Below are positions 3,575-24,355 of a stretch of DNA of 64,000 bases, one piece after another. Location of the stretch: contig ML996694.1 in NCBI GenBank assembly GCA_010356995.1, positions 2,819-66,818 of the forward strand, read 5' to 3'. Position 1 is the stretch's first letter; every line of letters begins with the position of its first letter. The position numbers were made by a program, and so were the translations under genes. Source of the DNA: Trichodelitschia bisporula. Lineage: Eukaryota; Ascomycota; Dothideomycetes; Phaeotrichales; Phaeotrichaceae. The notes beneath the pieces were generated by a model. It had not been told where the DNA came from. It saw only the letters and a program-made list of their open reading frames with translations, and made no database searches.

Positions 3575-3715
3575 TGTTAAAATGAAGTATGAACTTGACT
3601 GAGTTGCTTGACTGACTAGCAGTAGGAAGTGAGCTGACTATATACATCGCCGGGAGACGACCCCTGTCTCCTGGCTCCACTCCAGCCACCCCAGGTTGCC
3701 GCCACAAATTCAACA
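3575..3715 (-). repeat. Left 141-bp LTR of the copia fossil
   Basis: It begins TGTTAAAATGAAG and ends AATTCAACA. It matches the repeat at 6394-6534 over its full length with about 6 differences. Confidence 0.8.
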
Positions 3716-5911: not shown

Positions 5912-6158
5912 GGTGACGGGTTTGAGGGTGCGGAGAGGCGGTGAGGCAAGTGTGAAGAAAGGTGAAGAGAATTGATGAAGGAGGAAGAAGCATTCGGCTT
6001 GGAGGAGTTACCTCCGGTGAGGGAATTGGAGTAGAGAGGCAAGGGACAAGTAGAGGTGAGGATCTGACATCGAGTCCTGTATGACTCACACGGACAGATG
6101 AGAGATGGCGAACATCCACATCTAATTGTTTTGATGTGGTCCTGAAGCCTACGGAAAG

Positions 6159-6226
6159 AAAACTCCGCCAGCTGATGGTTGCGTGAGCAAAACTCCGCCA
6201 GCTGATGGTTGCCTGGGCAAAACTCC
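6159..6226. repeat. 30-bp tandem repeat, about 2.3 copies
   Basis: The unit starts AAAACTCCGCCAGCTGATGG and recurs at 6159, 6189 and, partially, 6219. It sits between the gag start and the right LTR, in the leader of the copia fossil. Confidence 0.75.
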
Positions 6227-6393
6227 ATCGCTTGAGACATTTTTGGATTGTTCTGCGTTGATCAAGGCGTGCAGTGGAAAGCTGTTAGGCCTGATTTGCC
6301 TTGAACCAATATTGTCAGAAGATCCGAGCATGTCAGTTTCATAGGATTTGCGTGGACACTTAGCTATTGCTGCGTAATTCCGGGCTCATAACC

Positions 6394-6534
6394 TGTTAAA
6401 ATGAAGTGTGAACATGACTGAGTTGGTTGATTGACTAGCAGTGGGAAGTGAGCTGACTATATACATCGCCGGGAGACGACCCCTGTCTCCTGGCTCCACT
6501 CCAGCCACCTCAGGTTGCCGCCACAAATTCAACA
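6394..6534 (-). repeat. Right 141-bp LTR of the copia fossil
   Basis: It has the same TG...CA ends and length as the repeat at 3575-3715. It is upstream of the minus-strand gag remnant, so it is the likely 5' LTR. Confidence 0.8.
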
Positions 6535-6973: not shown

Positions 6974-8766
6974 TTAAACGCTCTCCTTCGACTCACGGTC
7001 CATCTTCGCTTTGACATCCTCAAAGTCCACCGCATCGACCACCTGGCCATCAATCACGCCCATGTTCCTGTACAAGTCCTCCACGCACTCACCGTCCAAA
7101 AAGCCGTCCGTCTTAGCCAGCTCTTCGAACTTGCTGGCCGCGCGCACGTTGTTGTTGTCGCCGGCCAGCCCGGCATACCCAGCGGGTACAATCCGCGGTG
7201 GAAACACGAAGCGCCCAAACACAGAATAAAATACAAATGCGCAACCAAAAGTTAGGACCCAACCAGTGTTGTACATGTGAATAGCGGCGATGGCGACAAG
7301 GTCCGGGCGGTAGGCGCCGATCAGGCCCGGGAGGCCAAATACCATGCCGCAAACCCAGCAGGCGGTCGGCACGATCTGCCAGCCCCTGATGCCATAATAC
7401 AATCCGCCGGGGCGAGGGTCGTACATGGAGGGGACATGGTAGTTGCCGCGGCGGACGACGAAGTAGTCGCAGATGACAATCGCACACAGCGGAGCCATGA
7501 AGATACCATAGCTGCCGAGGAATGTGAGAAAGCCGGCGGCGTCCTTGAGGAGCTGCCACGGGACAACTGCAATGCCGAGAATCGAGCAGATGACTTGGCC
7601 GCGTTTGATGGTCAAGAACTTTGGGAAGAGGCCGGTGACGTCGGAGCCAAACGGCATGCTGTTTGCACCAAAGTTGGTAGTGACCACGGACAGCCCAAAG
7701 CCAAAGGCGGCGAAGAAGCAGCCGGCGCGCGCGGCCGGATTCCAGAAGCGATCAAGGATGGCGCTGAGCAAATCCCACTGGTTCCAGTACGACTCGCCAA
7801 ACTTTGGCGTCACCGCGGCCGTTGCACCGCAGCCGAGGAAGAAGATGACCGTCTTGCTGATAAAAATGGACGCAACTTGTGGCCAGCCCGCATCGCGCGG
7901 CGAGCGAGTGTAACGGGTAAAGTCCGGCTGGTTGACGAGCAGCGGCGACAGCGTGCCCATCACCGAGTTGACGCCGTTGAGCATGGCCCAGCCGAGCGCA
8001 CCACCGGTGAGCGGCTTGCTGCCGAGTGTCTCCAGTGACAAGCCGCCGCCGTACGAGATGCACCAACCGAATGTCCCGAAGCAGGCAATGGGGACAATCA
8101 CCGAGGCCGTTGTAAACAGGTGGCGGATGCGCGTAGGGTGCACGAACTGGAAGGGAAACTGGATGAACCAGAAGAGGAAAAAGGCGAGGATCTCGCGCGA
8201 GCTCGTGCCGGTGCTCGCTGGGAGGTGGTTTGGGATGTTTTGCCAGTGGTGGCCGAAGATGCAGCGCAGACACACGCTGAGGAGCTTGCCGCCGAAGAAG
8301 GTCTGCACGCCGTACCAGATGATGGCGACGATGGCGCGCAGCGCAACAAAGAAGTAGGCGCCGTACATGCCGAAGATGCCACGCGCGAGGACGGGATATC
8401 CAATGTGGTATGTGGCGCCAGGGCGGCCCATGCCGAGTGCCACAAAGGATGCGATGACATTGGCGATGATGGCGGCGAGCAGCGCCTGCCACCACAGAAG
8501 GCCGACGGCGATCAGGGCAGCGCCGTTACCCCACTGGTTGCTGTTGAAGGCGTTGCTCCACCAGTACATAGACATGGATACCCTTTGCGGTCAGTCTTGC
8601 GTTTCTCTGCGCGGCAACAGACTTACCAAGTCCAGGTGCGGCGTTCCGGCGGACTCGGGGCCAGGTCGTGGTTGATCCATTGGGATGAGCCCGTCATCTC
8701 ATTGTCCGTCGCCAGCGCTCGCTTGAGTGAAGCCTTGGTCGGCAGCTTCAACCGTGCGGAAACCAT
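6974..8766 (-). CDS. NCS1 nucleobase/allantoin-type permease
   Basis: This is a plasma-membrane symporter of the nucleobase-cation-symport-1 family (fungal Fur type), which imports uracil, uridine, allantoin or related compounds with protons. The product is about 582 aa from two exons, 8627-8766 and 6974-8582, joined across a 44-nt intron with GTAAGT donor. The splice yields an N-terminus ending in PPERRTWTW and running straight into the first membrane helix. Family marks visible are WYGVQTFFGG, an NQPDFTRYT block and about a dozen hydrophobic helices, with a charged cytoplasmic tail. The start at 8766 is chosen because the conserved pre-TM1 motif SPPERRTW needs exon 1. Four GATAA motifs lie 185-341 bp upstream, which fits nitrogen control. 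The substrate cannot be fixed from sequence alone. Confidence 0.92.
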
Positions 8767-10314
8767 GATGTCAGATAGTATGGGGAAACGTGGATGAACG
8801 GCGGACTCGGGACAGAGACTCTATTTGAAGGTGCACACTGCAGTGGGAACTATAGAAAAGAATGCACCGGCAGCTGTACCAATGAGTTCCTCAACAACTG
8901 CAGCATTATCAGTTGACGCAGCAGCGAGATTGTCCTAGCGCACCGCGTTGGATAACGCATATATTCCCGGCCTAACGTCTTGGATAACATCAACGCCTCC
9001 GTGGTGCTGATAACCCAGTGCGCCCCGCCACTGGAGCAGCCATGATCGACGGCCAGACCACGGAGTGGACCCCGCTTCGCGGCATGTGCAAATAGACCAA
9101 GAGATAATGGAAAAGTGATTGTCGCTCCGCCCCTCCCGGCTCTGGCTGAGGGACGGGACATGACTTTTTTAATTAGCTCTTGAACCGACTGCTCGCAGCC
9201 ACGATACCGCAGGTAAGCTTTTGCCAACGCAAGGCTAAGCTGGTGCATCGTACTCGGACAATGGGCCGGCCTAGGCGGAGCTCGCGTGGTGAGGCTCACC
9301 GAAGTACTTGCCGATTGGTGGTGATATTTCCAGCATGGGGGGTTTGCACAGTGGAGATGATGTGGTTGGGTGAAATCTGGGGCCGGGGAAGTCTTTATCG
9401 TTGATAAGGCTGGGGCCCCGCTGACGTCAGACCTTAGCGCCTGATTGGGGACGAAGCGAGAAGATAGTCGGAACCAGTAGCCGACAGGACGCGATAAGCG
9501 GATCTTGAGTCCGAACACCAAGAACGCACTTCCGACGGGAATAAGCAGTGCGATCATATACCAATGCGGTGTGTGGCTGCTAAAGAATGCGCTTTATCTT
9601 TTTCGAGGGCCGCTGCGAATTGATCACAAATCGCCGCTTACGTCAATTGACGTGAACGAGGCGGTATCACAGCCTTGCGACTTGCCTGTCCCAGCGCGGG
9701 CGGAACCCAGTCAGTTTCCCTGCTGCCGTTGACAGAAATTTGCAGACTAGCGAGTAGCTCTAGCTAGGACAATCTGCTCTGGCGGCGGAATCCCTTGCTG
9801 ATATAGTGAAGCCAAGTTGCATGGGGCCCGCCGGTGCCATCGACTTCGAACACACAGTGTGGAGTGCCACCGGCGAACCCGGGTCCATATCAACTCACCG
9901 CGATTGTTTCTTCCTTGTGCAGTATGCTCCTGATCAGCTTAGGGTTAGGCTCAGGGTTCTTTGCGTACCGTAGCTGGCTTTTCTCATAATCTGACAAAAA
10001 GTGTATGCCCTGGCAGATGGCAGGCAGGTGCTAGTTGACATTGGTCCCTGTGGTCAATGCGGGGGAAGTGGGGCACGGTTGGGACTGAAAAGCATGCCGG
10101 TCAATGGTTTCTCACTAACAAATCTCAAGAATGTGAATAAATCAGACGCTTCATATTGACTTCTATCATCCTCAGCCGTATGAACCAGAAGGTTGGTCGA
10201 ACATCCTTTCAGTTCCACATGAGGAGGAAGTCTGAGACCCGTTGTCGAGTCCACTTTTCCCGCCATCAGGCTTTGAAAGCGGAGATTCTTTCCTTCAAAT
10301 TTTATCGGTTGTTT
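8767..10314. other. Long upstream region of the NCS1 gene, no gene seen
   Basis: Only short frames without family resemblance are present. The first 350 bp contain the GATA cluster described separately. Further GATA motifs occur near 9397 and 9490. The rest is unremarkable. Confidence 0.5.
8951..9107 (-). promoter_or_regulatory. GATA-factor motif cluster upstream of NCS1 permease
   Basis: GATAA occurs at 8951, 8983, 9009 and 9103, all within 350 bp of the permease start. Fungal GATA activators of the AreA/Nit2/Gat1 type bind paired GATA motifs to switch on use of secondary nitrogen sources. Binding is inferred. Confidence 0.5.
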
Positions 10315-11823
10315 CTAGGCGTGGTCGCCGACGTCGGTGTGTGTCTGCCATGTGTACGCGTATGGAAGCGGTAGCCCGAACTGCGAGATGACAGCGCGAA
10401 TTTCTCGAAACTCAGCGTCCTCCCGCTCGTGCTGCTCCTCGATACCCTCCTTCTTGATTTGCGGCTCCTCGGGACACTCTTGCTTGATTTGCGGCTCCTC
10501 AGAACTCTCCCGCTTGATTTGCTGTTTCTCAGAACTCTGCCGCTCGTATTGCTGTGAACGCTTCTTCTCAGCTTTCCTCTTCCTGTAGCGCCGCACCCGG
10601 GCTCTCTTCCGCTTACGCTGCTGCTCATTAGCTATGTCTTCAGCTCTCCGCTGCTTGTGCTGCTCCTCCAACTGCTCTCTCAGCCTCAACCTCAGTCACT
10701 CTGCGCGGTTCTGCTCAGCGACCTCCCCCCAGCCTCGATTTGGTTGCTGGTACCCAGTGTCCTGCAGATTCAACGTGGACTGGGGGCCTCTGGTCCTGGA
10801 AGCTTCTCCCGGTGTCGGAAACCCAGTTTTATGTCGCATACGGAAGCTTGGTTGCTGCTGCTCACTGTTCTGCGGCCTCGGCCTGATCTCGTGTCCTCCG
10901 AGTTTGAGAATTTGTCCGGGTTCCGGCGGTCCAATTGGCGCCCACTTCTCGCGCTCGCTGTCGGGCCAGTCCACGCCGTATTCGTCTTCAAACGCGTGAA
11001 CGAGCTCCTGAATACTGTGTGCCAACCTAGAGGTGCCCGCTGGCGCCTTCGCTAAGTTGAGCAAGTAAACCTCGTAACCTGGACGAAAGCTGGACCATAC
11101 ATTCGTGCTCTGCATGTTGCAGGTAAAGCCACCGCTATCGAGACCCTGCGGAGTGACGACGTTATGGTAGACGAGAATGGGCTGGCCGATAATGTTGATC
11201 GGCAACTCGGGAATGTACAGGACGGAGGTCAAATACAGTGTCCCCTCCCTGAATGCTTCCGTCTGGACCTTTAACTCCACCGTACCGATACCCGCGACGT
11301 GGACAGTTCCCTTAGGGCATTGGGCGGTGGAGTCTATCGGCTTGAAGTCGACGAACCATTGCCTTTGCGTGGCAACACTGAAACGTGTTAGAAAGTACTT
11401 TCATAAGAGGGACACATCGACGTACTGGACTTCGGAATCAGAGGCATACACCCAATCTGGATGGAGTCTCTTGTACAAGCACAAGCTCTGTGTAATGTCG
11501 TGCCGATTGGGCATGACGATACCAGGATCCCGCGCGAAAAAATGTGAATGGCGCATTGGGTGTGGGAATGTTGGATGACAAACGCCAGTAGAGGGCAAAG
11601 CGAAGGGATGAGGCGGTAGACAACTAGAAAAAATATTATGGTGTGAATGTGGAAGGAAATCGGGGAGGATGGGGAGGAGGGGAAAGATATCCAAGCGGCA
11701 AGAGTGTAGAGGCTCCTGTTTGGGTGGCCCCAGCGCATGGAGCTTGCCCATAAATACGGCAGGAACGATCCAAGGTGAGCAGTTGAGACACGGCAGGTAC
11801 ATGTTGCCAAGCATCATGGACAT
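10315..11823 (-). mobile_element. Fossil or retroelement-derived locus with retropepsin-like segment
   Basis: On the minus strand, a frame at 10696-11380 carries a segment typical of copia-type aspartic protease regions (LYLTSVLYIPELPINIIGQP). A further frame continues upstream to about 11823, and a basic repeat-rich frame lies at 10315-10689. The frames are interrupted at least once, and no reverse transcriptase or integrase is visible nearby. It may be a decayed Ty1/copia fragment or the remains of a gene once captured from one. It is treated here as a fossil. It lies in the gene-poor interruption of the nitrogen cluster. Confidence 0.45.
10443..10545 (-). repeat. 30-bp coding-type tandem repeat
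   Basis: The block CTTGATTTGC recurs at 10453, 10483 and 10513. On the minus strand the frame gives ten-residue repeats of the pattern EEPQIKxEs. Confidence 0.7.
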
Positions 11824-12006
11824 TCCGGCAAAGATGTTTTGGGACGAGAGGTGTACGTCACGTGAGCACCTCAGCCTTGCATACCTTCGCAGACTGGAAG
11901 TGACACTGCAGAGCTGTGTCTGACAGAAGTGTTGGTCTTGACATAATTCAAAGTCAAGCTTGGGGGCAGACCCAGGAAAATAGGGCGAAACGGCGGGGCC
12001 GTCGAT

Positions 12007-13395
12007 TCATATACTGATGCTAAGTAGAAACAGAAGACCGCCCAGAAACAGAACATCATGTATATCGTGCGACCGGGCTGGAAGTAAGCCATCACCTTGT
12101 TCTCGCGGCTTAGGGTCTCGACGGCCTTGGACCATTTGGCGAAATTGCTGGTCCACAAATGAATTGACCGCGCGGTCTTCACGTTCTCGCATGTGTTGTC
12201 GAAACTGCGGATCCTGAACTTCGCGGATCGCACGATCGTACTGTTCCTGCATCGCTTGCCGGACCACCGGATCGATGACGCCAAAAGAAAGGATCCCAAT
12301 TCAGTGACTCGCATGATTCTGCGGTTGACGGGTTGATAGGGTTTTTGTGTACGTCCAGGATCTGCATCTGGACAACAATCGTGTCCAACAGCACAAAAGC
12401 CTGTGCCCCCGGCGACCTGGAAGAATACCTGATGGGGGGGAAGGCCGCTCGGTCGAGGCCGAGGGTCTCTTCTTCGTGGTCCCAGATGGTGAGAGCGCTC
12501 GATCCGGAGTTATTCAGAAAGCCGACTCCGACTCTGTTCGAGCTCTCAGAGCCGCCGAATGAGGGGACAAGGCGGATTACACCTTGGAGCTGCCGCAATG
12601 TTAGCAAGTCTGCACAGGATACAGCAGGTAATGTGTTCCAAGAGTCATACCACATCGGGGTCCCAGCTCGCAGTTGGGGCGAGCGGGAGCATTGTCCCAA
12701 CCAGGTCCTGAGGCGTTCAGATTTGGCTGCGGAAGATGGCGTCGAGTGGACTAACCTCAACCCACAGGGGCTTTGAGATCCTTGCGGCGGACTCAAGGCT
12801 GGCCACCTTTCCGTCCAGGGCGCAAAGCACCCCGGACTCCCCCCCTTCTAGCCTTTCGACAATGCGAGCAAGGTGGCGTGCTGTGCCACCATGTCCGGAC
12901 GACTCATGAGACCCCGAAGCTTCTCGATCTTTTCCGCCGACGTTTCAGGCGGTTTCGGGCGCCCAGCATCAACCCAAGGAGTATCGGGGGGGATATCGGC
13001 GCCTGGGGGGATGCGGAACGAAACGATTTCCCCTGAAGGGGTGTAGACCGTGGACTACCCTCCTCCACCCATAGGGTCTTTCGCACCATTGCCGCTGACT
13101 CCGTTTTTGCGGCCTTGCCGTCCTGGGCGCATAGGACCCCGGACTCGCCCCTCTCCAGCATTTCTACGATGCACTGGAGATTCCGTCTTTGGGACTCCAT
13201 GCCTGGAGCCCTGATCAGACCCCGAAGTCGGATGATTGTCTCGGCGGTCGTTTCCGGTGGTGGTGGGCTGCCAGCATCGGGCCAAGGAATCTCTGGGGGA
13301 GCAGCGGCGCCTGGCGAGATGCGGAGCGTAACGATTTCCCCCGAAGGGGTGTAGACCGGGGAAATGGAGTGGCGCTTGACTATGGTGGCCTTCAA
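12007..13395 (-). pseudogene. Uncharacterised, partly duplicated multi-exon locus
   Basis: I do not recognise this family. Reading the minus strand, a frame starts at 13395 (MKATIVKRHS) and encodes a proline-rich segment followed by an ESGVLCAQDGK block. The same segment is repeated in the adjacent 308 bp (VYTPSGEIVSF, then ESGVLCALDGK), with a frame change inside the second copy. After it, exon-like pieces fit together with GT-AG introns: DLVGTMLPLAP, then a long piece beginning LQGVIRLVPSFGG and running to about 12330. A final frame ends at 12007 with an apparent hydrophobic tail (DVLFLGGLLFLLSISI), but I cannot join it without passing a stop. The locus is therefore either a decayed gene or has exons I have misread. 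There are no homology clues to function. Confidence 0.4.
12742..13357 (-). repeat. Tandem duplication of a 308-bp coding segment
   Basis: Positions 12742-13049 and 13050-13357 align from the GGTGTAGACC edge inwards, with many substitutions. Both copies encode the VYTPSGEIV start and the ESGVLCA block. 308 is not a multiple of three, so the duplication alters the frame. Confidence 0.65.
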
Positions 13396-13821
13396 CGTTC
13401 AATAAAGAGGACCGTGGGGACTGGGGACTAAGGCACAAACTAAAGCGAGTCAGCGAGTCGTCAGTAAAATGTTGGGACAATGGGGTGAAGAACGTCACGA
13501 ACCTCAGTATGGTGATCCGAAACTTAGGATTGCAAAGTTGAGAAGAGGAAGAGGGAGAGAGACGAAGGACCTAAGTACCCAGCTCCCTCAGAGATCCGGG
13601 AAGGAGCCCTGGGTGGCGACCCTGTGCCTTGCAGGAGCGCCCCCGAGTCTGGGAGAAAACATGACCAGACCCGTGACAAAGAATGCAGGTATGGGATGCA
13701 GTGATGATGGACCTGTTCTCAATACTGTTTGTGTGCTATTTATGTCAGAACTGCGAGTGTGTGTTTACGACCCCCTTCGGCGCAACTCACCGTGAAGGTT
13801 CCCCTTTCAACGCTTGTACTC

Positions 13822-14179
13822 GCAGGTGTCGTCCCCAGGAGGTCACCTTCTTGATGAATATCGGCTTCAGAGCAGTAGCCACCAGTGGGGTGAACCGCAC
13901 CGCCCGGCAAGTCGCCCCCTCGCCCGCACTGCTGACGAGACCGCCCGCCGTTGGTCTGGGAAGGCAGCAACTGGCTCGATAGATCGTTTCCTAGATGCTA
14001 GCAGGTGTCGTCCCCGGGAGGTCGCCTTCTTAATAAATATCGGCTTCAGAGTAGTAGCCACCAGTGTGGTAAACCGCACCGCCCGGCAAGTCGCCCCCTC
14101 GCCCGCCCTGCTGACGAGCCCGCCCGCCTTCGGTCTGGGAAGGCAGCAACTGGCTCGATACGTCGTTTCCCAGATGCTG
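13822..14179. repeat. Two tandem copies of a 179-bp unit
   Basis: Both copies start GCAGGTGTCGTCCCC (13822 and 14001) and end near GATGCT, with roughly 90 percent identity by eye. No open frame persists through both and no known element end is visible. It could be a young minisatellite or a duplicated non-coding segment. Confidence 0.8.
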
Positions 14180-14508
14180 ACGTTACCTTCCGGATGCCGG
14201 GATTGACTACCACCGGGAGTAGGACCCCTTGGGCCCTTGTGAGGCCTTTCCCCGTGACATCTACCAAGCTATGTCAACGGAGGTAACCTACTACGGTAGT
14301 GTACCCAGTTGCTAAACGCGGCACTCCCAAAACTCGGACCCGGCATAGGTTCAATCCCGACGATGATGCAAGATGCCTGACTCACTCCTCACTGTATACG
14401 CGTCTCCTCATTGTATACGCGTCTCCTCGGCCTGTATATGTGTATATAAAGCCCTGCTTGACTCCCCGTACATTTTTCCCACTGCAAGTATTGCGCCAAA
14501 GCTCCGCG

Positions 14509-14795
14509 ATGCTATTGAAAATGGACTCCGGCTCTCACTCCCAACATCATTCCCAAGAGGATTCCACTATGATGGTTATACTGACAATTGCTGACTGCTT
14601 TAGCAGGCCGCACAAGTCATAGAAGATCCGGAAGGCCCTGTCGGCACTTGGGAAGTTCGGGCACCCAATGGCCAGTTAACCTCAATCCTGTGTCAGCCTG
14701 GTCAAATGCCTTCGGAAGCCCAATGGAAAAAACTGGCGGATGCCTGCCAACCGCAACTTATCGATCGGACTATGAGAATTGAGCACCTGACGTAA
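14509..14795 (+). CDS. Possible small hypothetical protein
   Basis: A TATATAAA box lies about 65 bp upstream of an ATG at 14509. The 66-nt first frame (14509-14574) could join 14604-14795 across a 29-nt gap with GT...TAG ends, giving an 85-aa product with natural-looking composition (EDPEGPVGTWEVRAPNGQL). The intron would be unusually short for this genome, so the model is weak. No family is recognised. Confidence 0.25.
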
Positions 14796-15451
14796 CTTTT
14801 GGGAAATCCTGCGATGGGGCGCCAGTTCAAGAATATCTGCACTGTCATTCGGATACTTCAGGATGGTCGGCACGATGATAAGTTCGCCGTTCAGGATAGA
14901 GAACTGGTCCAAGACATCAACCAGGCGGTTCGTAGTGCGAAGCCACTTTGGACTGAGGTATGTTTCACTAGCACTCGGTTGCATCAAGTCTCACGTCGTA
15001 TGCTAGAGTATCTACCCGGGAGGATGTGAGGTAAAGTGGATCCATGCCGGCTTACCTTTCCGACACGGTGAAGAGAAGTAGGCATGCAAGAGGAAGGGGG
15101 TCTTCATACTCGATAATGTTGCCTTAAGCAATGCTGCCATTCGTAAGCTTGGCCAGTCTCTCATCTTCGAAGCAATGATGCGTCGCCTGCGATTTGCATG
15201 CCACGAGGTATCATTGTGCTGGAGCGGCTCTACGTTTACGAGCGAGCGGGGGTGAAGGTGGACGGTGATGGGGTTCAGGTTGCCAGCTCTAAGTGCAAGG
15301 CAGAGCTCTCGAATGGCGAGCTCTCTGATTCGGAGTAGAAGTACGCTCGTTGAAGTTCGGCAGCAGCGGCGCACGGTGTGAGCTTCGCGAGCTATCGCTA
15401 GTGTTCGTATTTGGTATACTAGTTTGAGTCACACAACGCTAGTTCTCATAT
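14796..15451. other. Gene-poor, 3' flank of the amidase gene
   Basis: Only short frames without family resemblance. The right-hand part should include the amidase 3' untranslated region. Confidence 0.45.
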
Positions 15452-17172
15452 CTATGGCTTTTCTATCCGCCAGTCGAACTTGCTCTCCCACGCGTGACCT
15501 GCCCGGAGCACCTTGCTATCCTGCCACAGGCCGCCCACAATCTGCATACCCACCGGGAGATACACGTCCTTCTTCGTCTCCGACGGCAGCCAGCCCACCG
15601 GAATCGTCATCGCCGGTTGCCCCGTTACGTCAAACATGGCCGTGTTCGATGTCAATCCGACGGTGGGCTGGATCGTCGCAATCGGCGTCGTTAGCGGGCC
15701 GTGCTCGCGCGCGACAAATGACGTCGTGGGCAGGACCAGAACGTCGTACGTCTCCAGTGCATTCTCGTACGCATCACGCACACGGCGTGTCAAGTTCTGC
15801 GCCTTGCAGTAGATGCCAGGGAAGTTGTCGATCAGGTAAAGGCCGTTGAGCATTGTGTTCTTCGTCGTCGGGAAGGCCTTGTCGAACTTCTCCTGCGTCC
15901 ACTGGTGCAGCGCCTTGTCGAGCTCCGTCAGACCGTAGCCGCGACGGCCGAAGACCTTCCCGAGCAAGTTTGAGCTACCGGCGATGCGTTGCTGGATGGT
16001 CCACACAGCCGTGCCGAGCAGGTGGTCCGGGATCGACACGTCCTCAACAGTGGCGCCAAGCTCCTTGAACCGCATCGCCGCTGCCAGCACGGCCGCCTTC
16101 ATGCCAGGGTCGACAATTGCCTGCGTGAACCCTTCTGTAAGAATGCCTACCTTGAAACCGGTGAGGTCCGTTGCCGACGACAGCTTCAGGTCTGCGGCAA
16201 AGGTGGTTGTGCCATGCTTCGGAGCGCCGAGGGACCGGTCGTCGATACCGTCGTAGCCGCTAATGGCGTCGAGGCAGAGTGCTGCATCCATGACCGTCTT
16301 CGTCAGCGGCCCAGCATGGTCGTCAACAGGGTCGTTGCTGGCAATGCCGGTGTACGGCACGAGGCCGTGGGTGGGTTTGAGTCCGACGCATCCGCACAGC
16401 GCGGCGGGGACACGAATGCTGCCGCCCTGGTCGGCGCCGATACAAATGTCTACAAATCCACCACCCACCAGCGCGGCGCCGCCAGATGTGCTGCCGCCGG
16501 CATTGAAGCCCTTGGCGTGCGGGTTCTCGATGGTGCCGTAGGCGCTGCTCATAGAGCTTGTCGACTGGCACATGTTCTCGCAGTTGGAGGTGCCCACGAT
16601 CTCGGCGCCAGCCTCAAGCGCCCAGGTCACCACCGTCGCATCGCTGCTAGGCACCCACGGCTCGATGATGTCTGTCCCCAAAGTTTGAGGCACGCCGGCT
16701 ACTGTGATGCAATCTTTGAGGCACACCGTCTTGCCCGTCAATGGGCCGTTGATAGACGCGTCTTTAATGGAGAAAGTATGTGCCCAAGCAGTACCAAGGA
16801 CCTGATCTTCGGGCGGCACTCTCCGCACATTGTTACGCGGGAAGCGCTCGAGGTCTGTAGGCGGGTGGTAATCGGGCAATGCCTCGATCATGGCGGCGCA
16901 ATCATGGCACTAGAAGGTTAGCGGAACAAGACGCGAGGCAAGACGGGAGGAGCAACTCACAGCAGCCAGTAGCTTGGTGTAGTCGGCCTCATCTTCGGGA
17001 GAGACCTTCACGCCCACCTTCGACGAGGCGATGCTGATATGGTCGGTGGTGACAGGATTGGATCTGTAAGACGTGAGCGGAGTCTCGTACGGAGGTGAAA
17101 AGGGCCGGCGGGACGCGCGGGGAGCGGAGTGCGGGGTGCTCACTCGGAGATGCTTGTGAAAAGGACCGACAT
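15452..17172 (-). CDS. Amidase-signature family hydrolase
   Basis: This Ser-cisSer-Lys hydrolase cleaves a carbon-nitrogen amide bond to release ammonia or an amine. The product is about 529 aa from three exons: 17144-17172, 16961-17063 and 15452-16909. The introns are 80 and 51 nt. Catalytic residues are visible: Lys109 in VCLKDCITVAG, cis-Ser186 in AGGSTSGGAAL and Ser208 in GADQGGSIRVPAA. The length is normal for fungal amidases. The first two exons supply about 44 residues that resemble the usual N-terminal helix (EDEADYTKLLAA), which supports the start at 17172. It is transcribed divergently from the PuuE-type gene at 17536 with a shared GATA-containing 363-bp promoter. The context suggests it acts on a linear ureide or amide formed by ring opening. 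The exact substrate is unknown. Confidence 0.92.
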
Positions 17173-17286
17173 TTTTGTGGAACTTTCTCTTGACGACTTC
17201 AAACCGCGAACTTTGTTCAACAAGTAATGTGCACCGTCCCTCCCAGCATATATCACCATCGACTGACTCACCATGTGGGATGTCAC

Positions 17287-17346
17287 TTATCTCGCCGCCT
17301 GCCGCCTTCCTCCCTCCCCGCTGCATTGCGGCAAGATAGGCTATCG
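17287..17346. promoter_or_regulatory. GATA motifs in the amidase/PuuE divergent promoter
   Basis: TTATCT (17287), AGATAG (17334) and CTATCG (17341) lie within 60 bp between two divergent genes. This pattern suits a fungal nitrogen-regulatory GATA factor. It is inference only. Confidence 0.45.
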
Positions 17347-17535
17347 CATGGCAATTATTCCCGTCAGCGCACCCGTCGGGAGTTCACCACATGTCCGATC
17401 ATCGGAAGCTGAGCAGACGATGCATTTAAGCTGAGCTGGTAAGCGCCATAGCTCTCATCCCATAGCAGACTTCCTCTCGTCTTCACATCCATCTTCATCT
17501 CATCTCGTCGTCGCCCAACCACCTCATCCCCCACC

Positions 17536-18558
17536 ATGTCCACCCCCTACAACCTGGGCACCGACGCCCTCAAAGTGGCTCCCTTCAAGTGGGACGATCA
17601 CTACGACTTCCCTCGCAACCTCGTCGGCTTCGGCGAAAAGTCGCTCAACCCGCAGTGGCCCAATGGCGCGAAAATCGCCGTCTCGTTCGTCATCAACTAC
17701 GAGGAGGGCGCCGAGCACACCGTCCTCAACGGCGACGTCCACTCGGAGACACACCTCTGGGAGGCGCCCGGCGGCACTCCGCACGTTCAGGAGCGCGCAG
17801 TCAACATCGAGTCCGAGTACGACTACGGCGCCCGCGCCGGCGTGTGGCGCCTCTTCCGCCTGTTCAACAAGCACAACTTCAAGTACACATTGTACGCCGT
17901 CGGTCAGGCGCTCGAGGGCAACCCCGCAGTGGCACGGCATTCGGTCGAGAACGGGCACGACATTGCGTCCCACGCGTACCGCTGGATCGACTATCACAAC
18001 ATGCCGGCGGAGCAAGAGAAGGAGTACATTCGCAAGGCCCTGACGTCGATCAAGGAGACGAGCGGCGTCTACCCCAAAGGCTGGTACTACGGCCGGCTCT
18101 CGCCTCGCTCGCACGCGCTGGTGTGGGACGTGTACAAGGAGATGGGCGTGCCTCTGCTGTGGGAGTCGGACTCGTACGCCGACGACGTGCCATACTGGGT
18201 CGACGTGCCGGCTGAGAAGGACTCGCCAAACCCCGAGGGCATGCTCATGATCCCGTACTCGTACGACTGCAACGACTACAAGTTCAACGTGGCCACTGGC
18301 TTTGGCGCGCCGCACGATTTCTACGATCATGTCAAGGGCGCCTTTGACGTGCTGTACGAGGAGGGCTCTGAAGGCTCGCCAAAGATGATGACCATCGGCC
18401 TGCATTGCCGCTGCATCGGCAAGCCGGCGCGCTTTGCGGCGCTCAAGAAGTTTGTTGAGTACATTGCGGCCAAGGAGGGTGTGTGGGTGGCGACGCGCAC
18501 GCAGATTGCGGAGCACTTCCGTGAGAAGTTCCCGTACAAGAAGGGCCAACTCGCGTAG
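17536..18558 (+). CDS. PuuE-type allantoinase-like amidohydrolase
   Basis: This single-exon protein of 340 aa belongs to the polysaccharide-deacetylase fold, in the PuuE branch. That branch holds metal-independent allantoinase and related cyclic-amide hydrolases rather than chitin deacetylases. Family blocks seen are INYEEGAE (residues 53-60), EYDYGARAGVWRLFRLF, GHDIASHAYRWIDY, a SDSYADDVPYW stretch and GLHCRCIGKPARF near the C-terminus. The NodB metal triad of true deacetylases is replaced, as in PuuE. There is no signal peptide, so the enzyme is cytosolic. A long pyrimidine-rich leader precedes the ATG. It shares a promoter with the amidase, which suggests that ring opening here is followed by amidase cleavage there. 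It could open allantoin, a hydantoin or a pyrimidine-derived ring. Confidence 0.88.
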   Translation: MSTPYNLGTDALKVAPFKWDDHYDFPRNLVGFGEKSLNPQWPNGAKIAVSFVINYEEGAEHTVLNGDVHSETHLWEAPGGTPHVQERAVNIESEYDYGARAGVWRLFRLFNKHNFKYTLYAVGQALEGNPAVARHSVENGHDIASHAYRWIDYHNMPAEQEKEYIRKALTSIKETSGVYPKGWYYGRLSPRSHALVWDVYKEMGVPLLWESDSYADDVPYWVDVPAEKDSPNPEGMLMIPYSYDCNDYKFNVATGFGAPHDFYDHVKGAFDVLYEEGSEGSPKMMTIGLHCRCIGKPARFAALKKFVEYIAAKEGVWVATRTQIAEHFREKFPYKKGQLA

Positions 18559-19429
18559 ATTCGTAGCCTCGTGATGAATTATGATGTTTCTTGCCCATTG
18601 CTTATGGTGATGTGCGCCCTCGCCCCGTGTGGAATGTCTCCCAAAGCCCTGGCTGTTTCCCACAAATATCGGAGCATCAAATGACGTCCATCGGCACCTC
18701 CTCCGAGCCGTCATCTCTCAACGCTTGCCATATCTTGCTCTCATCCGGCCTTCGACTTCCCGTTCCCCTCTTCACTTGCTGCGCCGGACCGACCAGAAGC
18801 CAGTCAAAATGGATTTCCCCTTTCGTGAGTGCTCGAGCACCGGCACCTGCCAGGTCGGAATCTGCGGCCAGCAATCGGACCGAGTTGCTGATTCGCAGAC
18901 GCCAGACCCTGTTCATTTGCACCGAACCTTCGCTTGCCCGACCTCTATCGGGCCGCTGACACGTTCCCAGTTGCCCGATTCTAAGCCGACCACATGCCAA
19001 CTGGCCACGACCCCGGCGAATCAAACAACTTTGGACATCGCATGGAGCCAGCTCTCAAATATGCAATGACAGGAATGTTTTTTTTGGAGTATGAAAGAGT
19101 CTGTTTAGGGCAGCGCATGCCAGTTCCAGAATCATGCAATTTTAGCAATTGTTTGGTTCCGCCAATGAGCGAATTGCAAAACATCGCATAGAAGGAGAGA
19201 GTGATCGCGGCTGCCCGCTCAAGAGGCATCGCACCCATCTCCTCTCATCTCCATTGAACAGGCTCCATTGCAAAAATGCTGTCCAAGTTTCAAAGTCATA
19301 ACCCGCTGTAGCAGCCCACTGTCGCTTTCGCCTCCTTTCCAAACCCATTACCAAGCTCCATCGCTCAGTAGGTTCCGTGTGAAAGCCCATGAAGCGATGT
19401 GTGTCTAACAGCCGCATAGCACCTCCATC
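18559..19429. other. Intergenic, no supported gene
   Basis: No family resemblance on either strand. An ATG with a GTGAGT donor shortly after it occurs near 18808, but no partner exon could be fixed. Confidence 0.4.
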
Positions 19430-19686
19430 ATGTCCGGCAACAAGAATCATCAGAACGAGACCTCCAATACCCAAAATCCACCACAAACGAACCGAAGTCC
19501 AACAAGGCCTTCGACTACAACTACGGCGTGCCAGACTTCACGACAGAGGAAATGAAGTGGCTGAAAGACAACTGGAAGGGTGAATTCAACTTTCTCATTG
19601 CGTATGGCCTGAAAATGCAAAATCACGAGGACCGCGCGGAGGGTCGGCGTATTTGCCGGATCATGATGGACCCGGACGACGACTGA
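19430..19686 (+). CDS. Possible small protein, frame interrupted
   Basis: An ATG at 19430 opens a short hydrophilic frame (MSGNKNHQNETSNTQN). An overlapping frame then gives a protein-like stretch, FDYNYGVPDFTTEEMKWLKD, ending in an acidic tail at TGA 19686. The two differ by one frame and there is no room for an intron, so this is either a decayed gene or a gene whose true first exon lies upstream (a TAG acceptor with a CTAAC branch precedes the second frame). No family is recognised. The charged, aromatic-rich composition is not random. Confidence 0.35.
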
Positions 19687-20222
19687 TCTCGATACCATAG
19701 TCGGTCACCGAGACACCTGTGCACCTGTCGTGGGGTCCTTGGGACCTGCCGGTTGCGGGTGCACTGAATGACGTTTAATGAGAGCCATTTGCTTTTGGCG
19801 TTTGCTGCACATCTGAGCTGAGTTTCTACTGTATCTTAATGCAAGCAATGAAAATTCTAGACTGCTGAATACGAGGCAAATGACTCTCTGTGATCCATGT
19901 TGCCTCATGACTGAATTTATTCCCTTCTAGTACATATTTCATCAAGTCTTCTGTTCTTGATACGGGAAGCCGACATTCGAGAGCCTCTGACCTTCATCAT
20001 ACGGTATGCTCAAGCAAGCCAGCAACGATGATGCCTCATCCTGAGCGTATCCCCATCTACAGTAACCTAGCTCCCGTGCAAAATGCCGGAATCACAATCA
20101 ACCGGAGCTCGGAAAAGTCAGATGAGGTACAGTAAATCATGAGGGCCGTTCAAATGAACAAGCCTCTGTATCATAGAGCAGTACAGGTACCAATGACAGC
20201 AGGTATGCCATTCATACAATCA

Positions 20223-21119
20223 TTACTCATTCAATCCCAAAATGTCCCGCACCCGCGCCGTCTTCTTCAGCTCCCGAAAAGCCGGCGGCCGCGGTGTCTC
20301 CCACCCGTCAAAGCAGGCGCCGTATGTGATACCACCGCCACGCCAAACCGGACGCAGTTTCCGAATGTCAACCGTCTCCCGCGCCTCGTTCACAACATCC
20401 TCTCGCACGTGGAACATGACCGCCTCAACCAGCACCACCGTCGCCGTCCGCACCGTCGGGTCCGCCGCCGAGTATATGGGCGTGGTGCTGTGCACCTTAC
20501 ACTCGATACTAAAAGCCGACTCCGCAGCATACGGCGGCCGGATCTTAGTACTCGGCACCGGATGCAAGCCCGCCAGCGCCCACTCTTCGACATGCGGCGG
20601 GGTGTTAACGGACGTAAAGTTGGCCGCCTCGAGGAACCAGTCACTGATGATACTGATGCACATCTCCCTCGTCTCAAGCACATTCGTCAAGCTGTCGTTC
20701 GCGTCCTGACCGACAAAGCTCACACTGTACAGCGGCGGATCCGTGCTCACAGGCTGGAAGTACGAAAACGGCGCGACGTTGCCGATGCCAGTCGCAGACA
20801 TGGTGCTCACGAGCGCGATGGGCCGCGGCACCACAGAGCTGATGATGAGCTTGTAGTTCTGATTCATCGTGCGGTCGGGCGCATGCGGGTCGATGGCGAG
20901 GCGCTTGTGTGCCTCCCATTCGCGCGACGAGGCTCCGTCGCCAGGCTGCCACGTCGGGTTTGGTGTTTTGGTGACCTTCCACTCGAGGCTGTGGTCGTAG
21001 GCCGGGCGCGCGGCTTCGACGGCGGGGAAGTCGACGTGTGGGTTGCGCTGGACGAGGGCTTCTTTGTCGAAGGCTTCTTCCGGGGCGTTGAGCGCTTCGG
21101 GCGCTGCGTGAGGGGCCAT
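20223..21119 (-). CDS. Flavin-reductase-like FMN-binding split-barrel protein
   Basis: The 298-aa product has the flavin reductase-like domain (PF01613 type), which binds FMN and can supply reduced flavin or act as an oxidoreductase. The core begins near residue 88 with KLIISSVVPRPIALVST, followed by NVAPFSYFQPVSTDPPL and SFVGQDANDSLTNV, and ends in a conserved ITYGACFDGW region. About 80 N-terminal residues precede the domain, as in many fungal members. The start at 21119 was preferred to an upstream in-frame ATG at 21263 because it leaves room for the divergent promoter. It is head-to-head with the second NCS1 permease. It may partner the FMN monooxygenase at 41961-43463 or act in the local ring-degradation pathway. 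Both are inferences. Confidence 0.87.
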   Translation of the reverse strand: MAPHAAPEALNAPEEAFDKEALVQRNPHVDFPAVEAARPAYDHSLEWKVTKTPNPTWQPGDGASSREWEAHKRLAIDPHAPDRTMNQNYKLIISSVVPRPIALVSTMSATGIGNVAPFSYFQPVSTDPPLYSVSFVGQDANDSLTNVLETREMCISIISDWFLEAANFTSVNTPPHVEEWALAGLHPVPSTKIRPPYAAESAFSIECKVHSTTPIYSAADPTVRTATVVLVEAVMFHVREDVVNEARETVDIRKLRPVWRGGGITYGACFDGWETPRPPAFRELKKTARVRDILGLNE

Positions 21120-21199
21120 GGCGTGCGAGTGGGCCCGACCATCACACTGGGTTCTGGGCCCTGATATCGTGGGCGTAGAGGGGCCGAAAATGAGCCCGT

Positions 21200-21356
21200 G
21201 ATAAAAAATAAGGCCGCGATAAGGCGCAAGGCCGGCGACGGATGTGCTTCCGATGGACGGCATCCGTGCCGCGTAGCGTGCCGACCGCCCCTGCCGATCT
21301 CCACTTCGGGCTGGGTCCGGTTCCGCTAGCGCCTAGCCTCGCATCGTAGGTTATCT
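21200..21356. promoter_or_regulatory. GATA motifs in the flavin reductase/NCS1 divergent promoter
   Basis: TGATAA at 21199, CGATAA at 21217 and TTATCT at 21351 lie in the 480-bp region between the divergent starts at 21119 and 21600. Co-regulation by a nitrogen GATA factor is inferred. Confidence 0.45.
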
Positions 21357-21599
21357 CGCTATCATGGCTGATTATTGAGCGATACAGATGATTGAGGCGA
21401 TTGAGCAATGCAGGCGATTGCGACTGATGCTGCGGCGGCATTCGGAACCGTATCCTGTCGTGCTTATGGCTCTGGAAAAGTCAAACAGCATGAAGATGCA
21501 TCTATATATCGGGGCCAGGGAGACCCAGAGTGACGGAACAGCAAGCGGCAGCGGCATCCATCTTCTCCACTCTATTGGCTTCTTAGCCTTCCCGCAACC

Positions 21600-23330
21600 A
21601 TGGTTTCATTCCCCAAGGTCACTGTTCCCCGCACCTTCACCGCGTGGCAGGTCAAGGAAGAGGGCCAGGATGAGAAGTCCTTCAACCGCTGGGCGAATCG
21701 CGATCTGATCCCCAGTCCGCCTGAGGAGCGCAACTACACTGTCCGGGGCTACTTTGGCTTCTGGTATGACCCCACTTCAAAGGTCTTTGTCGTTCAAACT
21801 AACAAGACAGGGTCGCCGCCGCTGTCAACATCTCCGGCTGGACGCTCGGCTCGAGCAACCTCGCCAATGGCCTCAGCGCCGGCGAGGCCATCGGGATGGT
21901 GTTCATCGGCTCTGTGCTCGCCGGTCTCATCTCCTTCGTGTCAGGCGAGCCAGGCGTCAAGTACCACGTCGGCTTCCCGATGATGTCGCGCGTCGGCTTC
22001 GGCATGTACGGGTCGTACTTCGTCATCATGCTCAAGTGCTTCGTCAACTTCATCTACTTCGGCATCCAGGCGTACTGGGGTGGCCTCGCCGTCAAGGTCA
22101 TCCTGAGCGCCATCTTCCCGTCCTTCCAGCACATGAAGAACACGCTGCCCGAGGGCGCGGACATCACGACCAACCAGCTTATCGGCTTCATCATCTACAT
22201 CCTCATCTTCACGCCGCTTATGCTGGTGCACCCGCGCAAGCTGCACAAGTACCTCTGGGGCGCCTTCGGTGCCGTCCTGGCGACCATGGTGGGCCTCTTC
22301 ATCTGGGCTGTCGCCTCGAACCACGGCGCCGCGGCGCCGGGCCCGAACCTGCTCATCCCCAAGGCGACGCGCCAGTTCCGCATGCTCCAGTGCGTCAGCT
22401 CCGTTGCCGGCGCTTGGACAGGCAGCGCCATCAGACAATCGGACTGGACGCGGTACGCCAAAACGAAGCGTGCACCCGTGATGAACCAGCTGTTCACCGT
22501 GCCCATCGCGCTCACTGTCGTTGCGACTCTCGGCGTCTTCGCCACCAGCGCCGTCAAGGACATGTATGGCAAAACCATCTGGCAGCCCATCACGCTCCTC
22601 GAGTTTCTGTTGGCCCACAACTACAACGCTGCCACCCGCGCGGGGTGCTTCTTCGCGGGCCTAGGTTTCTTCCTCAGCCAGATCTCCGTCAACCTGGTGC
22701 AGAACTCCGTGGCGGCGGGCATGGATCTCGCGTCGCTGGCGCCCAAGTGGATCGACGTGACGCGGGGCAGTCTCATCATGTGCTTCGTCGGCTACCTGAT
22801 CAATCCGTGGCGCTTCGTCAACGCGCCAGGCACGTTCATCACGGTGCTCAACTCCTTCGGCATGTTCATCTCGCCGCTCGCCGCCATCAACGCCGTCGAC
22901 TTCTGGATCATCCGCAAGCGGAACTGGAAGGTACCGGATCTGTATGTCGGCAACAAGAACTCCATCTACTGGTATCATGCTGGCCTGAACTGGCGGGCCT
23001 TCCTCGCCTGGACCATGGGCATCTGGCCTTCTTTCCGTAAGTCCCTTCTCCACGCCCCGAACGTCGCTAACCTCATCAGCCGGCTTCTTTGTCGCAACTG
23101 GGGCCGCGAAGCTGCCCATCGTGTGGATCCGCATGTTCCAAGTCAGTTGGTTCATCGGCTTCCTGGGTGGTGGTGCCATCTACCTGGCCGTATGCTTAAT
23201 CTCGCCGCCGCCGGGCAAACCCTATGTCAGCGAGTTGTTCGGTAACGAGCATGTGGACGTAATTGATGGTCGGTCGGACGGCTCATCGGTGGTGGATGTG
23301 GTGGAGACGAGCGCGAAGCTGAAGGTGTAA
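21600..23330 (+). CDS. NCS1-family permease, second paralogue
   Basis: The product is about 546 aa from three exons: 21600-21763, 21811-23036 and 23080-23330. The introns are 47 and 43 nt with GTATGA and GTAAGT donors. It shares the NCS1 layout: an SPPEERNYT motif before the first helix, FIYFGIQAYWGG, a long hydrophilic loop, an SDWTRYAK block and about 12 membrane helices. It is clearly distinct from the permease at 6974-8766, so the two are not a recent duplication and may import different substrates. It lies between the flavin-reductase-like gene and the alpha/beta hydrolase gene and is transcribed with the latter. The likely cargo is a nucleobase, allantoin, hydantoin or a thiamine-like heterocycle. 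Confidence 0.92.
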
Positions 23331-23351
23331 TGGAGGAGATGGTTATGCATC

Positions 23352-23450
23352 GGATAGACTGTGTCATATGATTGTTTCAAGCGCGCGCTGCAGATAAGAC
23401 GTTTAGTCCGGCTTTCCGAGGCGTCGGAAGCCATTCCGAGCGCTGGATAA
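23352..23450 (+). promoter_or_regulatory. GATA motifs upstream of the alpha/beta hydrolase
   Basis: GGATAG (23352), AGATAA (23392) and GGATAA (23445) fall in the 176-bp gap between the permease stop and the hydrolase start. Confidence 0.45.
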
Positions 23451-23506
23451 AAGCTGCTTTGAATCCTGCTTTGAGCTTTAGTCAATTCAGTGCGCCCTCA
23501 GCCATC

Positions 23507-24355
23507 ATGTCCGTCACGATCAGGAAAGCGTACGTCGACACGCCTCATGGCCAGCTCCACTACCGATATGCCGCACCAGTCCTCGCCGCCGATGCGAAAC
23601 CCAAAGAAACGCTGCTCTTCCTCCACAAGTCTGCCTCCTCCAGCGTAAGCTACGAACTCTTGATGGGCATGTACGCCGCCAAAGGGCACCCCTGCTACGC
23701 GCCCGACTACCCTGGCTTCGGACGCAGCTTCGACCCCGACGCCGAAGCCATCGCGTTGATCGAGAAAGACGGCACAGCCTGGTTCGCGAAGCTCGTCCTC
23801 AATGCAGTCCGCAGCCTCGGCGTTCAGACAGCGCACATCATTGGGCACCACTCCGGCACGGCCCTCGCTCTCGAGCTAGCAGCTACAGTCCCCGAGTTCA
23901 CCAAAAGCATCGCGCTGGTCGGGCCAGCGGTCATGAGCGAGGAGGAGCGAGCGGCCATGAAGGAAGTATACTTCGCGCCGTTCAATGAGCCGCGTCCGGA
24001 CGGTGGGCATCTGCTCAAGACGTGGGAATATCTTGCTCATATGGGAGTTGGGGAGGACATCGGGATGTGGCAGCGGGAGGCGCTAGACCATCTCCGCGCG
24101 TGGCGGGGCCGGACGCTGATTTACGGCGCGGTGTGGGCACAGGAGTGCGAGGCATTGTACATGAAGATTGAGTGCCCGATACTGTTGATGTGTGCGAGGG
24201 ACGATGTGCTGTGGAAATACTTTGGGCATGTCAAGTCGCTGCGGCCTGAGATTCCGGCAGTGGAGGTTGGGGGGGCAAACTTTGAGCTTGATCGGGATGC
24301 GGGGGGGATCGAGAAGGCGTGGACGTCATTTATGGAGACTTTATCTGGAGTATGA
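23507..24355 (+). CDS. Alpha/beta-hydrolase fold protein with His at the nucleophile position
   Basis: The single-exon product of 282 aa has the order of a RutD/MhpC-like alpha/beta hydrolase. It has an oxyanion-type LLFLHKSASSS, a DYPGFGRS loop, the nucleophile elbow IIGHHSGTALALELA, a helical cap and ILLMCARDDVLW before strand 7. The elbow reads G-H-H-S-G, so the residue at the usual Ser/Cys/Asp position is His. This variant also occurs in a subset of bacterial and fungal proteins with a GHHTG signature. The start at 23507 (MSVTIRKAYVDTPHGQLHYR) fits the first family strand; an upstream in-frame ATG at 23372 would only add a tail. It may hydrolyse or simply bind a small acid or carbamate formed in the cluster pathway. 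Catalysis is uncertain. Confidence 0.88.
   Translation: MSVTIRKAYVDTPHGQLHYRYAAPVLAADAKPKETLLFLHKSASSSVSYELLMGMYAAKGHPCYAPDYPGFGRSFDPDAEAIALIEKDGTAWFAKLVLNAVRSLGVQTAHIIGHHSGTALALELAATVPEFTKSIALVGPAVMSEEERAAMKEVYFAPFNEPRPDGGHLLKTWEYLAHMGVGEDIGMWQREALDHLRAWRGRTLIYGAVWAQECEALYMKIECPILLMCARDDVLWKYFGHVKSLRPEIPAVEVGGANFELDRDAGGIEKAWTSFMETLSGV

What the first reader, a model, noticed from the sequence alone, without database searches (positions are those of the whole stretch)
6974..24355. Candidate nitrogen-heterocycle degradation cluster with GATA-rich promoters
Six genes lie together: two NCS1 permeases, an amidase, a PuuE-type cyclic-amide hydrolase, a flavin-reductase-like FMN protein and an alpha/beta hydrolase. 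Every gene or divergent pair has three or four GATA motifs in its promoter (8951-9107, 17287-17346, 21200-21356, 23352-23450). The set parallels the roles in the bacterial Rut pathway and in allantoin use, yet does not match either. It may open a ring such as barbiturate, hydantoin or uracil and release ammonia.
Basis: partly seen in the sequence, partly recalled or inferred. Interest (0 to 1): 0.78.

Follow-up and report, generated by a model that had tools for sequence, protein, structure and literature searches.

The report
Fungal cyclic-amide nitrogen-scavenging gene cluster
A group of fungal genes near a contig end looks like a kit for importing a small nitrogen-containing ring, cutting it open and stripping off ammonia; its core enzyme pair seems to recur in other moulds, but the ring it eats is not known.

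Summary
All six genes are present at the stated coordinates, and the GATA counts are right. HGATAR sites in the four promoters exceed dinucleotide shuffles (12 vs 4.2 expected, P about 0.0005); ten other upstream regions of the window hold 6 in 4.5 kb. The genes are not contiguous: 6.7 kb with retroelement remains separates the first permease. By proxy, the core is conserved: the amidase and PuuE-like genes carry consecutive locus tags in Helicocarpus griseus and Fonsecaea erecta, and the amidase and alpha/beta-fold gene share contig lengths in Eremomyces and Cladophialophora. The PuuE-like protein sits in its own fungal clade and has PuuE-type (metal-free) motifs. Uricase, classical allantoinase, allantoicase and Urc4 families hit elsewhere in the genome, so allantoin and uracil are poor substrate guesses. 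The 'alpha/beta hydrolase' has His at the nucleophile position and usually Asn for the catalytic His. Best reading: a GATA-controlled cluster that imports a small cyclic imide or ureide, opens it and releases ammonia. It works like HxnM/HxnN but is built from other subfamilies. Substrate unknown.

The parts
6974..8766 (-). NCS1-A, Fur-type NCS1 permease (exons 8627-8766 and 6974-8582), 582 aa
   Evidence: PF02133, 319 bits; TIGR00800 355.1, cut-off 353.1; Mhp1 Trp117, Gln121, Trp220, Asn318 positions = W136, Q140, W245, N354
8767..9766 (-). Upstream 1 kb of NCS1-A with 9 HGATAR sites
15452..17172 (-). AMID, amidase-signature enzyme (exons 17144-17172, 16961-17063, 15452-16909), 529 aa, with K109, GGSTSGG from 182 and GGS 206-208
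   Evidence: PF01425, 280.5 bits; PRK07235, 457 bits, cut-off 545
17173..17535 (.). Shared divergent AMID/PuuE-like promoter, 3 HGATAR sites within 55 bp
17536..18558 (+). PuuE-like NodB-fold protein, 340 aa, intronless; proposed ring opener
   Evidence: (TIGR03212 357.6 bits, cut-off 424.6)
20223..21119 (-). Flavin_Reduct (FMN split-barrel) protein, 298 aa
   Evidence: PF01613, 84.8 bits; best solved relative 3bpk, 99 bits
21120..21599 (.). Divergent FMN/NCS1-B promoter, 4 HGATAR and 9 GATA
21600..23330 (+). NCS1-B permease (exons 21600-21763, 21811-23036, 23080-23330), 546 aa; 31% identical to NCS1-A; pocket Y137, Q141, F244, N353
   Evidence: (PF02133, 270.6 bits)
23331..23506 (+). ABH promoter region, 3 GATA but only 1 HGATAR
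23507..24355 (+). ABH, alpha/beta-hydrolase-fold protein with His115 at the nucleophile position and Asn258 for the usual His, 282 aa

Best explanation
A GATA-factor (AreA-type) controlled nitrogen-scavenging cluster of a filamentous ascomycete. Two NCS1 permeases import a small planar ring with amide nitrogen. The PuuE-like enzyme hydrolyses the ring C-N bond without metal. The amidase then removes the freed amide (or carbamoyl) nitrogen as ammonia. The FMN protein and the alpha/beta-fold protein would modify the ring or the opened product. The ring is more likely a cyclic imide, hydantoin or related ureide than allantoin or uracil. Shown: gene families, GATA enrichment, pocket and motif residues; by locus-tag proxy, linkage of the core pair in two other ascomycetes. 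Inferred: co-regulation, metal independence, order of steps, substrate, role of the last two proteins.
For: GATA enrichment in the cluster promoters taken together. Amidase and PuuE-like genes are divergent neighbours here and carry consecutive locus tags on contigs of equal length in Helicocarpus griseus (AJ79_02015/02016) and Fonsecaea erecta (AYL99_11305/11306). The PuuE-like protein falls in a clade with those sequences, apart from the common fungal paralogue clade, and keeps the aligned NYEEG and SH-YRW stretches of the solved PuuE. The NCS1-A pocket matches all four Mhp1 positions and NCS1-B two of four. Uricase, allantoinase, allantoicase and Urc4 families hit elsewhere. Two Marinobacterium loci carry amidase + NCS1 + NodB-fold genes of other subfamilies.
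Against: Linkage in relatives is inferred from locus tags and contig lengths, not read from DNA. Of 7 species that I matched by name between the PuuE-like and amidase listings, 2 share a contig length; Aureobasidium pullulans, the only other one with cluster-like rows, does not (its amidase rows are on short contigs, 37,723 and 12,114). Of the 5 top-18 PuuE-like hits with locus tags, the other three species do not appear among the 120 listed amidase hits. NCS1-A is separated by 6.7 kb. Linkage of the FMN protein and the permeases was not tested. I saw no regulator gene in 6974-24355. No expression or metabolite data.
Confidence: 0.55

Rival explanations
1. A second, redundant allantoin (purine) assimilation module: the PuuE-like protein is simply an allantoinase and the permeases are allantoin carriers.
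For: Best solved relatives are PuuE-type proteins (3s6o, 1z7a, 3cl6) at 301-308 bits. The A. nidulans NCS1 protein FurE takes up uric acid, allantoin and uracil (start of abstract of PMC10788122).
Against: A classical allantoinase (447 bits, cut-off 358), an allantoicase and a uricase hit elsewhere; TIGR03212 score below the equivalog cut-off; an amidase is not a known allantoin step (established knowledge).
Confidence: 0.2
2. A detoxification cluster: the enzymes open and inactivate a plant, microbial or fungicide cyclic amide; nitrogen release is a by-product.
For: Near a contig end (the window starts at C8:2819); patchy named distribution in the listed hits; further along the window an OYE, quinone-reductase-like, AtuA, NtaA-type monooxygenase and DHA2 exporter genes.
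Against: The GATA-rich promoters point to nitrogen control; the further group is separated by mRNA-capping-enzyme and squalene-epoxidase genes, and its AtuA/QOR and NtaA/MFS promoters have no HGATAR, though the OYE promoter has 3 (P 0.077).
Confidence: 0.15
3. No functional six-gene cluster: nitrogen-regulated genes in a variable region, with only the amidase/PuuE-like pair functionally linked.
Against: Pooled GATA enrichment; ABH shares contig length with the amidase in Eremomyces and Cladophialophora carrionii, 2 of 5 species matched by name.
Confidence: 0.25
4. Horizontal transfer of an ascomycete cluster into a basidiomycete (Trichosporonales) genome. (The rivals here are not mutually exclusive.)
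For: The named hits that I recognised in the three listings of 120 are ascomycetes.
Against: Two unlinked host genes also sit closest to chains recalled as Aspergillus, Coccidioides and Magnaporthe, well above those recalled as Cryptococcus, which makes the host itself an ascomycete.
Confidence: 0.06

Closest known systems
Aspergillus nidulans hxnM/hxnN end of the nicotinate pathway (PMC9304392, PMC8478523; abstract starts and passages seen)
   Same: NodB-fold enzyme opens a cyclic imide at C-N, then an amidase releases the nitrogen; hxnM and hxnN adjacent in A. nidulans; GATA factor AreA control reported.
   Different: The paper reports HxnM closest to HpPgdA (3qbu) and HxnN closest to FAAH1; here PuuE structures score 301-308 bits versus 45 for 3qbu, and the amidase is closest to 3a1k. 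Direct comparison with HxnM/HxnN sequences was not made.
PuuE allantoinase (3cl6)
   Same: Alignment over residues 23-335, NYEEG and SHxYRW stretches.
   Different: Paired with an amidase; below the TIGR03212 cut-off; the host already has a classical allantoinase.
Bacterial Rut pathway
   Same: Roles: permease, flavin-reductase-like protein, alpha/beta-fold protein.
   Different: The proteins tested do not reach the RutA or RutD cut-offs and the FMN protein matches no NCBIfam model.
Marinobacterium amidase + NCS1 + NodB loci (L068, L069)
   Same: Same three roles; in L068 within about 4.2 kb.
   Different: Different subfamilies: L068 amidase nearest PRK06102 (524 bits, cut-off 559), NodB protein only 93 bits to TIGR03212. 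L069 seen by tblastn only.

Membership tests
PuuE allantoinase | TIGR03212 equivalog score at or above 424.6 | tested here: not met
   357.6 bits over the full model
PuuE allantoinase | PuuE-type sequence at the NodB metal-site motifs | tested here: met
   Aligns with 3cl6 at NYEEG and SHxYRW. That PuuE is not metal-dependent is from PMC10967932, triad substitutions from PMC8092297 (passages)
PuuE allantoinase | Hydrolyses allantoin | not testable with these tools
   Needs enzyme assay; classical allantoinase present elsewhere
hxn nicotinate cluster | HxnM-type (HpPgdA-like) imidase | tested here: not met
   3qbu 45 bits versus 301-308 for PuuE structures; a second, more distant NodB-fold gene lies at C9:914046; no direct comparison with HxnM
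hxn nicotinate cluster | hxnS, hxnR, hxnX, hxnV, hxnW linked | not tested
   Not recognised among the ORFs scanned in the window; an OYE, the broad family of HxnT, lies at 32.2-33.5 kb; genome not searched
Rut pathway | RutA, RutD, RutF family members | tested here: not met
   RutA 60.7 (cut-off 498.3) for the window's luciferase-like protein, RutD 31.6 (238.5), FMN protein no model; rest of the genome not searched
Rut pathway | RutB | not tested
   No RutB search was run
NCS1 transporters | TIGR00800 / PF02133 | tested here: met
   NCS1-A 355.1 (cut-off 353.1); NCS1-B 313.7, below that cut-off, but 270.6 to PF02133 (cut-off 23.5)
Catalytic alpha/beta hydrolases | Nucleophile Ser/Cys/Asp at the elbow and catalytic His | tested here: not met
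   GHH[S/T/A]G elbow in 115 of 120 rows (own protein included; 5 not matched by the pattern); G-x-N-F at the His place in 98 of 120, 17 not matched, 5 with another residue (one of them His); His115 in 25 of 25 aligned rows
Nitrogen (AreA/GATA) regulon | Clustered HGATAR upstream | tested here: met
   Pooled P about 0.0005; ABH alone not significant, FMN/NCS1-B borderline
Nitrogen (AreA/GATA) regulon | Ammonium repression | not testable with these tools
   No expression data

The most novel reading that the evidence does not exclude
An undescribed fungal catabolic pathway for a cyclic imide or ureide, patchily kept among filamentous ascomycetes, in which a metal-free PuuE-type enzyme has been recruited away from allantoin as ring opener and paired with an amidase, together with an alpha/beta-fold protein whose nucleophile is replaced by histidine and which therefore may not be a hydrolase.
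Probability: 0.4. Interest if true: 0.62.

Novelty: new variant of a known kind. Interest (0 to 1): 0.45.

Why it matters
If right, it adds a second fungal route, besides nicotinate, in which a NodB-fold enzyme opens a nitrogen ring and an amidase harvests the nitrogen. It would also suggest that many fungal proteins deposited as 'chitin deacetylase 1' are really small-ring openers, and it gives a short, testable list of substrates.

Tried and rejected
HxnM/HxnN type: rejected on closest structures (against passages of PMC9304392), not by direct comparison. Rut membership: rejected for the proteins tested. Allantoin or uracil as the main substrate: disfavoured. Horizontal transfer into a basidiomycete: my early reading, dropped. 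5.8S rDNA for host identity: no exact match in the assembly. Bacterial amidase loci as a direct guide: 80 loci, 24-43% identical in the best segment; a PuuE-like/NodB match in 3 of the 80. Fold search of ABH: 1821 hits at E 0.001 or better, the 50 listed being assorted alpha/beta hydrolases, no specific function. The PuuE-like model (pLDDT 78) was not searched further. Rfam: nothing in the window at gathering scores.

Literature: searches. I saw listings (titles and abstract starts; one search listed 12 of 466, 8 of 124, 5 of 15) and found no description of this cluster in them. I read passages, not whole texts, of seven papers: PMC8478523, PMC9304392, PMC3084791, PMC10967932, PMC8092297, PMC9379551, PMC10788122.

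Recalled, from no call: organism labels of PDB chains (Aspergillus fumigatus, Coccidioides, Magnaporthe, Cryptococcus neoformans), Mhp1 residues Trp117 and Trp220 (Gln121 and Asn318 were seen), the HGATAR consensus, Urc4 as the name of DUF1688, and the phylum of the named fungi.
Full report
The six genes exist. The coordinates 6974-24355 are right. They are not one tight block: 6.7 kb between the first permease and the amidase contains tandem and direct repeats and a retroelement Pol_BBD match. The window begins 2.8 kb from a contig end.

The GATA observation holds. Over the upstream or intergenic regions the pooled HGATAR count is 12 in 1520 bp against 4.2 in dinucleotide shuffles (P about 0.0005). 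Ten other upstream regions of the same window have 6 in 4527 bp (two overlap by 239 bp), and the 1.7 kb between the convergent PuuE-like and FMN genes has 1. Against the reading: the ABH promoter is not enriched on its own, FMN/NCS1-B is borderline (P 0.062), the old-yellow-enzyme promoter at 33.5 kb, outside the cluster, has 3 (P 0.077), and the region upstream of the Zn2Cys6 regulator is rich in plain GATA words (8, P 0.003) though not in HGATAR (1).

The host. Part of an acetyl-CoA synthetase on contig 1 and of a trehalose-phosphate synthase on contig 5 match best the chains 7kdn/7kq6/7kcp (750-729 bits) and 5hvm/6jbi (680-656 bits); 5ifi (522) and 8fhw (529, in two stretches) are far lower. 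From memory the former are Aspergillus, Coccidioides and Magnaporthe chains and the latter Cryptococcus neoformans; the tool shows no organisms. The named hits that I recognised for three cluster proteins are ascomycetes (120 listed of 5305, 176 and 2356). I take the host to be a filamentous ascomycete; two markers are few.

Conserved linkage. In Helicocarpus griseus the amidase is AJ79_02015 and the PuuE-like protein AJ79_02016, both with contig length 257,991. In Fonsecaea erecta they are AYL99_11305 and AYL99_11306, both 1,165,522. In Eremomyces bilateralis and Cladophialophora carrionii the amidase and ABH share contig lengths 1,929,489 and 201,398. Against: of 7 species matched by name between the PuuE-like and amidase lists, the other 5 differ (Aureobasidium pullulans, Coleophoma cylindrospora, Aspergillus nanangensis, Thozetella, Apiospora arundinis); of these only A. 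pullulans has cluster-like rows, its amidase rows being on short contigs. Of the five top-18 PuuE-like hits with locus tags, Rhinocladiella, Hymenoscyphus and Thermoascus do not appear in the 120 listed amidase hits. Between the amidase and ABH lists 2 of 5 species share a contig length (not C. cylindrospora, Xylariaceae sp. FL0016, Thozetella). Between the PuuE-like and ABH lists none of 11 species does; of these only Halenospora varia has a row of cluster-like identity (78% over 71%, too short for the tree). The listings show one name per cluster and are capped, so absence is weak evidence. FMN and permease linkage was not tested.

The PuuE-like protein. It aligns over residues 23-335 with solved PuuE-type proteins (301-308 bits) and only weakly with HpPgdA 3qbu (45 bits), the structure reported closest to HxnM (PMC9304392 passages). 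It falls short of NCBI's PuuE equivalog cut-off (357.6 of 424.6). A tree of 109 rows (12 of the 121 sequences, window one included, dropped for being under 300 residues) puts it in an 18-row group (support 93/91, fork drawn open) with the Helicocarpus and Fonsecaea sequences, apart from a 52-row group of fungal paralogues (94/92), several of them deposited as chitin deacetylase 1. 17 of the 18 rows were the ones I had labelled beforehand by rank; with the eighteenth outside the label, the label needs two changes on the tree. It is the only close PuuE relative found in the genome; the second hit, on contig 9, scores 43 bits.

What it probably is not. The genome has hits to classical allantoinase at 447 bits, allantoicase, uricase and DUF1688, recalled as Urc4 of the URC uracil route (two of its three matched pieces cross a stop in the six-frame search, so its intactness was not shown). 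So neither allantoin nor uracil seems to need this cluster.

Transport. NCS1-A has the residues aligned with all four Mhp1 substrate positions (W136, Q140, W245, N354); NCS1-B keeps the Gln and Asn but has Tyr and Phe for the two Trp. PMC9379551 (passage) notes that the second aromatic position is Phe or Trp across NCS1. That fits small planar amide rings for NCS1-A and perhaps a changed preference for NCS1-B.

The sixth protein is odd. In the 120 listed rows (own protein included) the elbow reads G-H-H-S/T/A-G in 115; five are not matched by the pattern. This puts His115 where the nucleophile sits: the model (pLDDT 91) has a strand ending at 114 and a helix starting at 116. The usual catalytic His is Asn in 98 of 120; 17 were not matched and 5 had other residues, one of them His. 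It has the fold but not the standard machinery, so 'hydrolase' is unproven.

How it works like known systems. HxnM opens a cyclic imide and HxnN removes the amide in A. nidulans nicotinate breakdown (PMC9304392 passages). PMC8478523 (passages) reports no hxn clusters in Basidiomycota but HxnM paralogues in all dikarya investigated. Two Marinobacterium genomes carry amidase, NCS1 and NodB-fold genes in one locus, in L068 within about 4.2 kb; among 80 distant bacterial amidase loci, 3 had a PuuE-like/NodB match. The role set recurs from different subfamilies; that is analogy, not membership.

Verdict: a real, GATA-rich, partly conserved nitrogen-catabolic gene group with unknown ring. The core pair is fairly well supported, the six-gene unit moderately, the substrate not at all.

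Noticed in passing
window 32200-45633: A second catabolic-looking group: old yellow enzyme, Zn2Cys6 regulator (ORF 34510-36333), AtuA protein, quinone-reductase-like protein, NtaA/DmoA-type FMN monooxygenase (ORF 41961-43631, 460 bits) and DHA2 exporter. The FMN protein at 20223 is nearest to NTA monooxygenase component B among solved chains, so a partnership 20 kb apart is conceivable.
   Followed up: partly
window 3575-6534: Direct repeats of 141 nt (96%) about 2.8 kb apart enclose a large near-perfect inverted repeat (arms within 4420-5063 and 5125-5765) of gag-like sequence with a zinc-knuckle-like motif; looks like LTR-element remains.
   Followed up: no
window 13819-14176: Tandem duplication of 179 nt, 92% identical, within the debris between permease and amidase.
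   Followed up: no
ABH family, 23507-24355 and hits P0121-P0240: A fungal alpha/beta-fold family (176 hits at E 1e-10, 120 listed) with His in place of the nucleophile and mostly Asn in place of the catalytic His.
   Followed up: partly
L082:10163-19880: Alphaproteobacterial locus with two amidase genes, alpha/beta-fold protein, luciferase-like monooxygenase and a PuuE-like NodB protein (132 bits to TIGR03212): a similar role set in a bacterium.
   Followed up: partly
G000 C4:1157036-1190610: DUF1688 (Urc4) matches lie about 31 kb from another NCS1 permease match.
   Followed up: no
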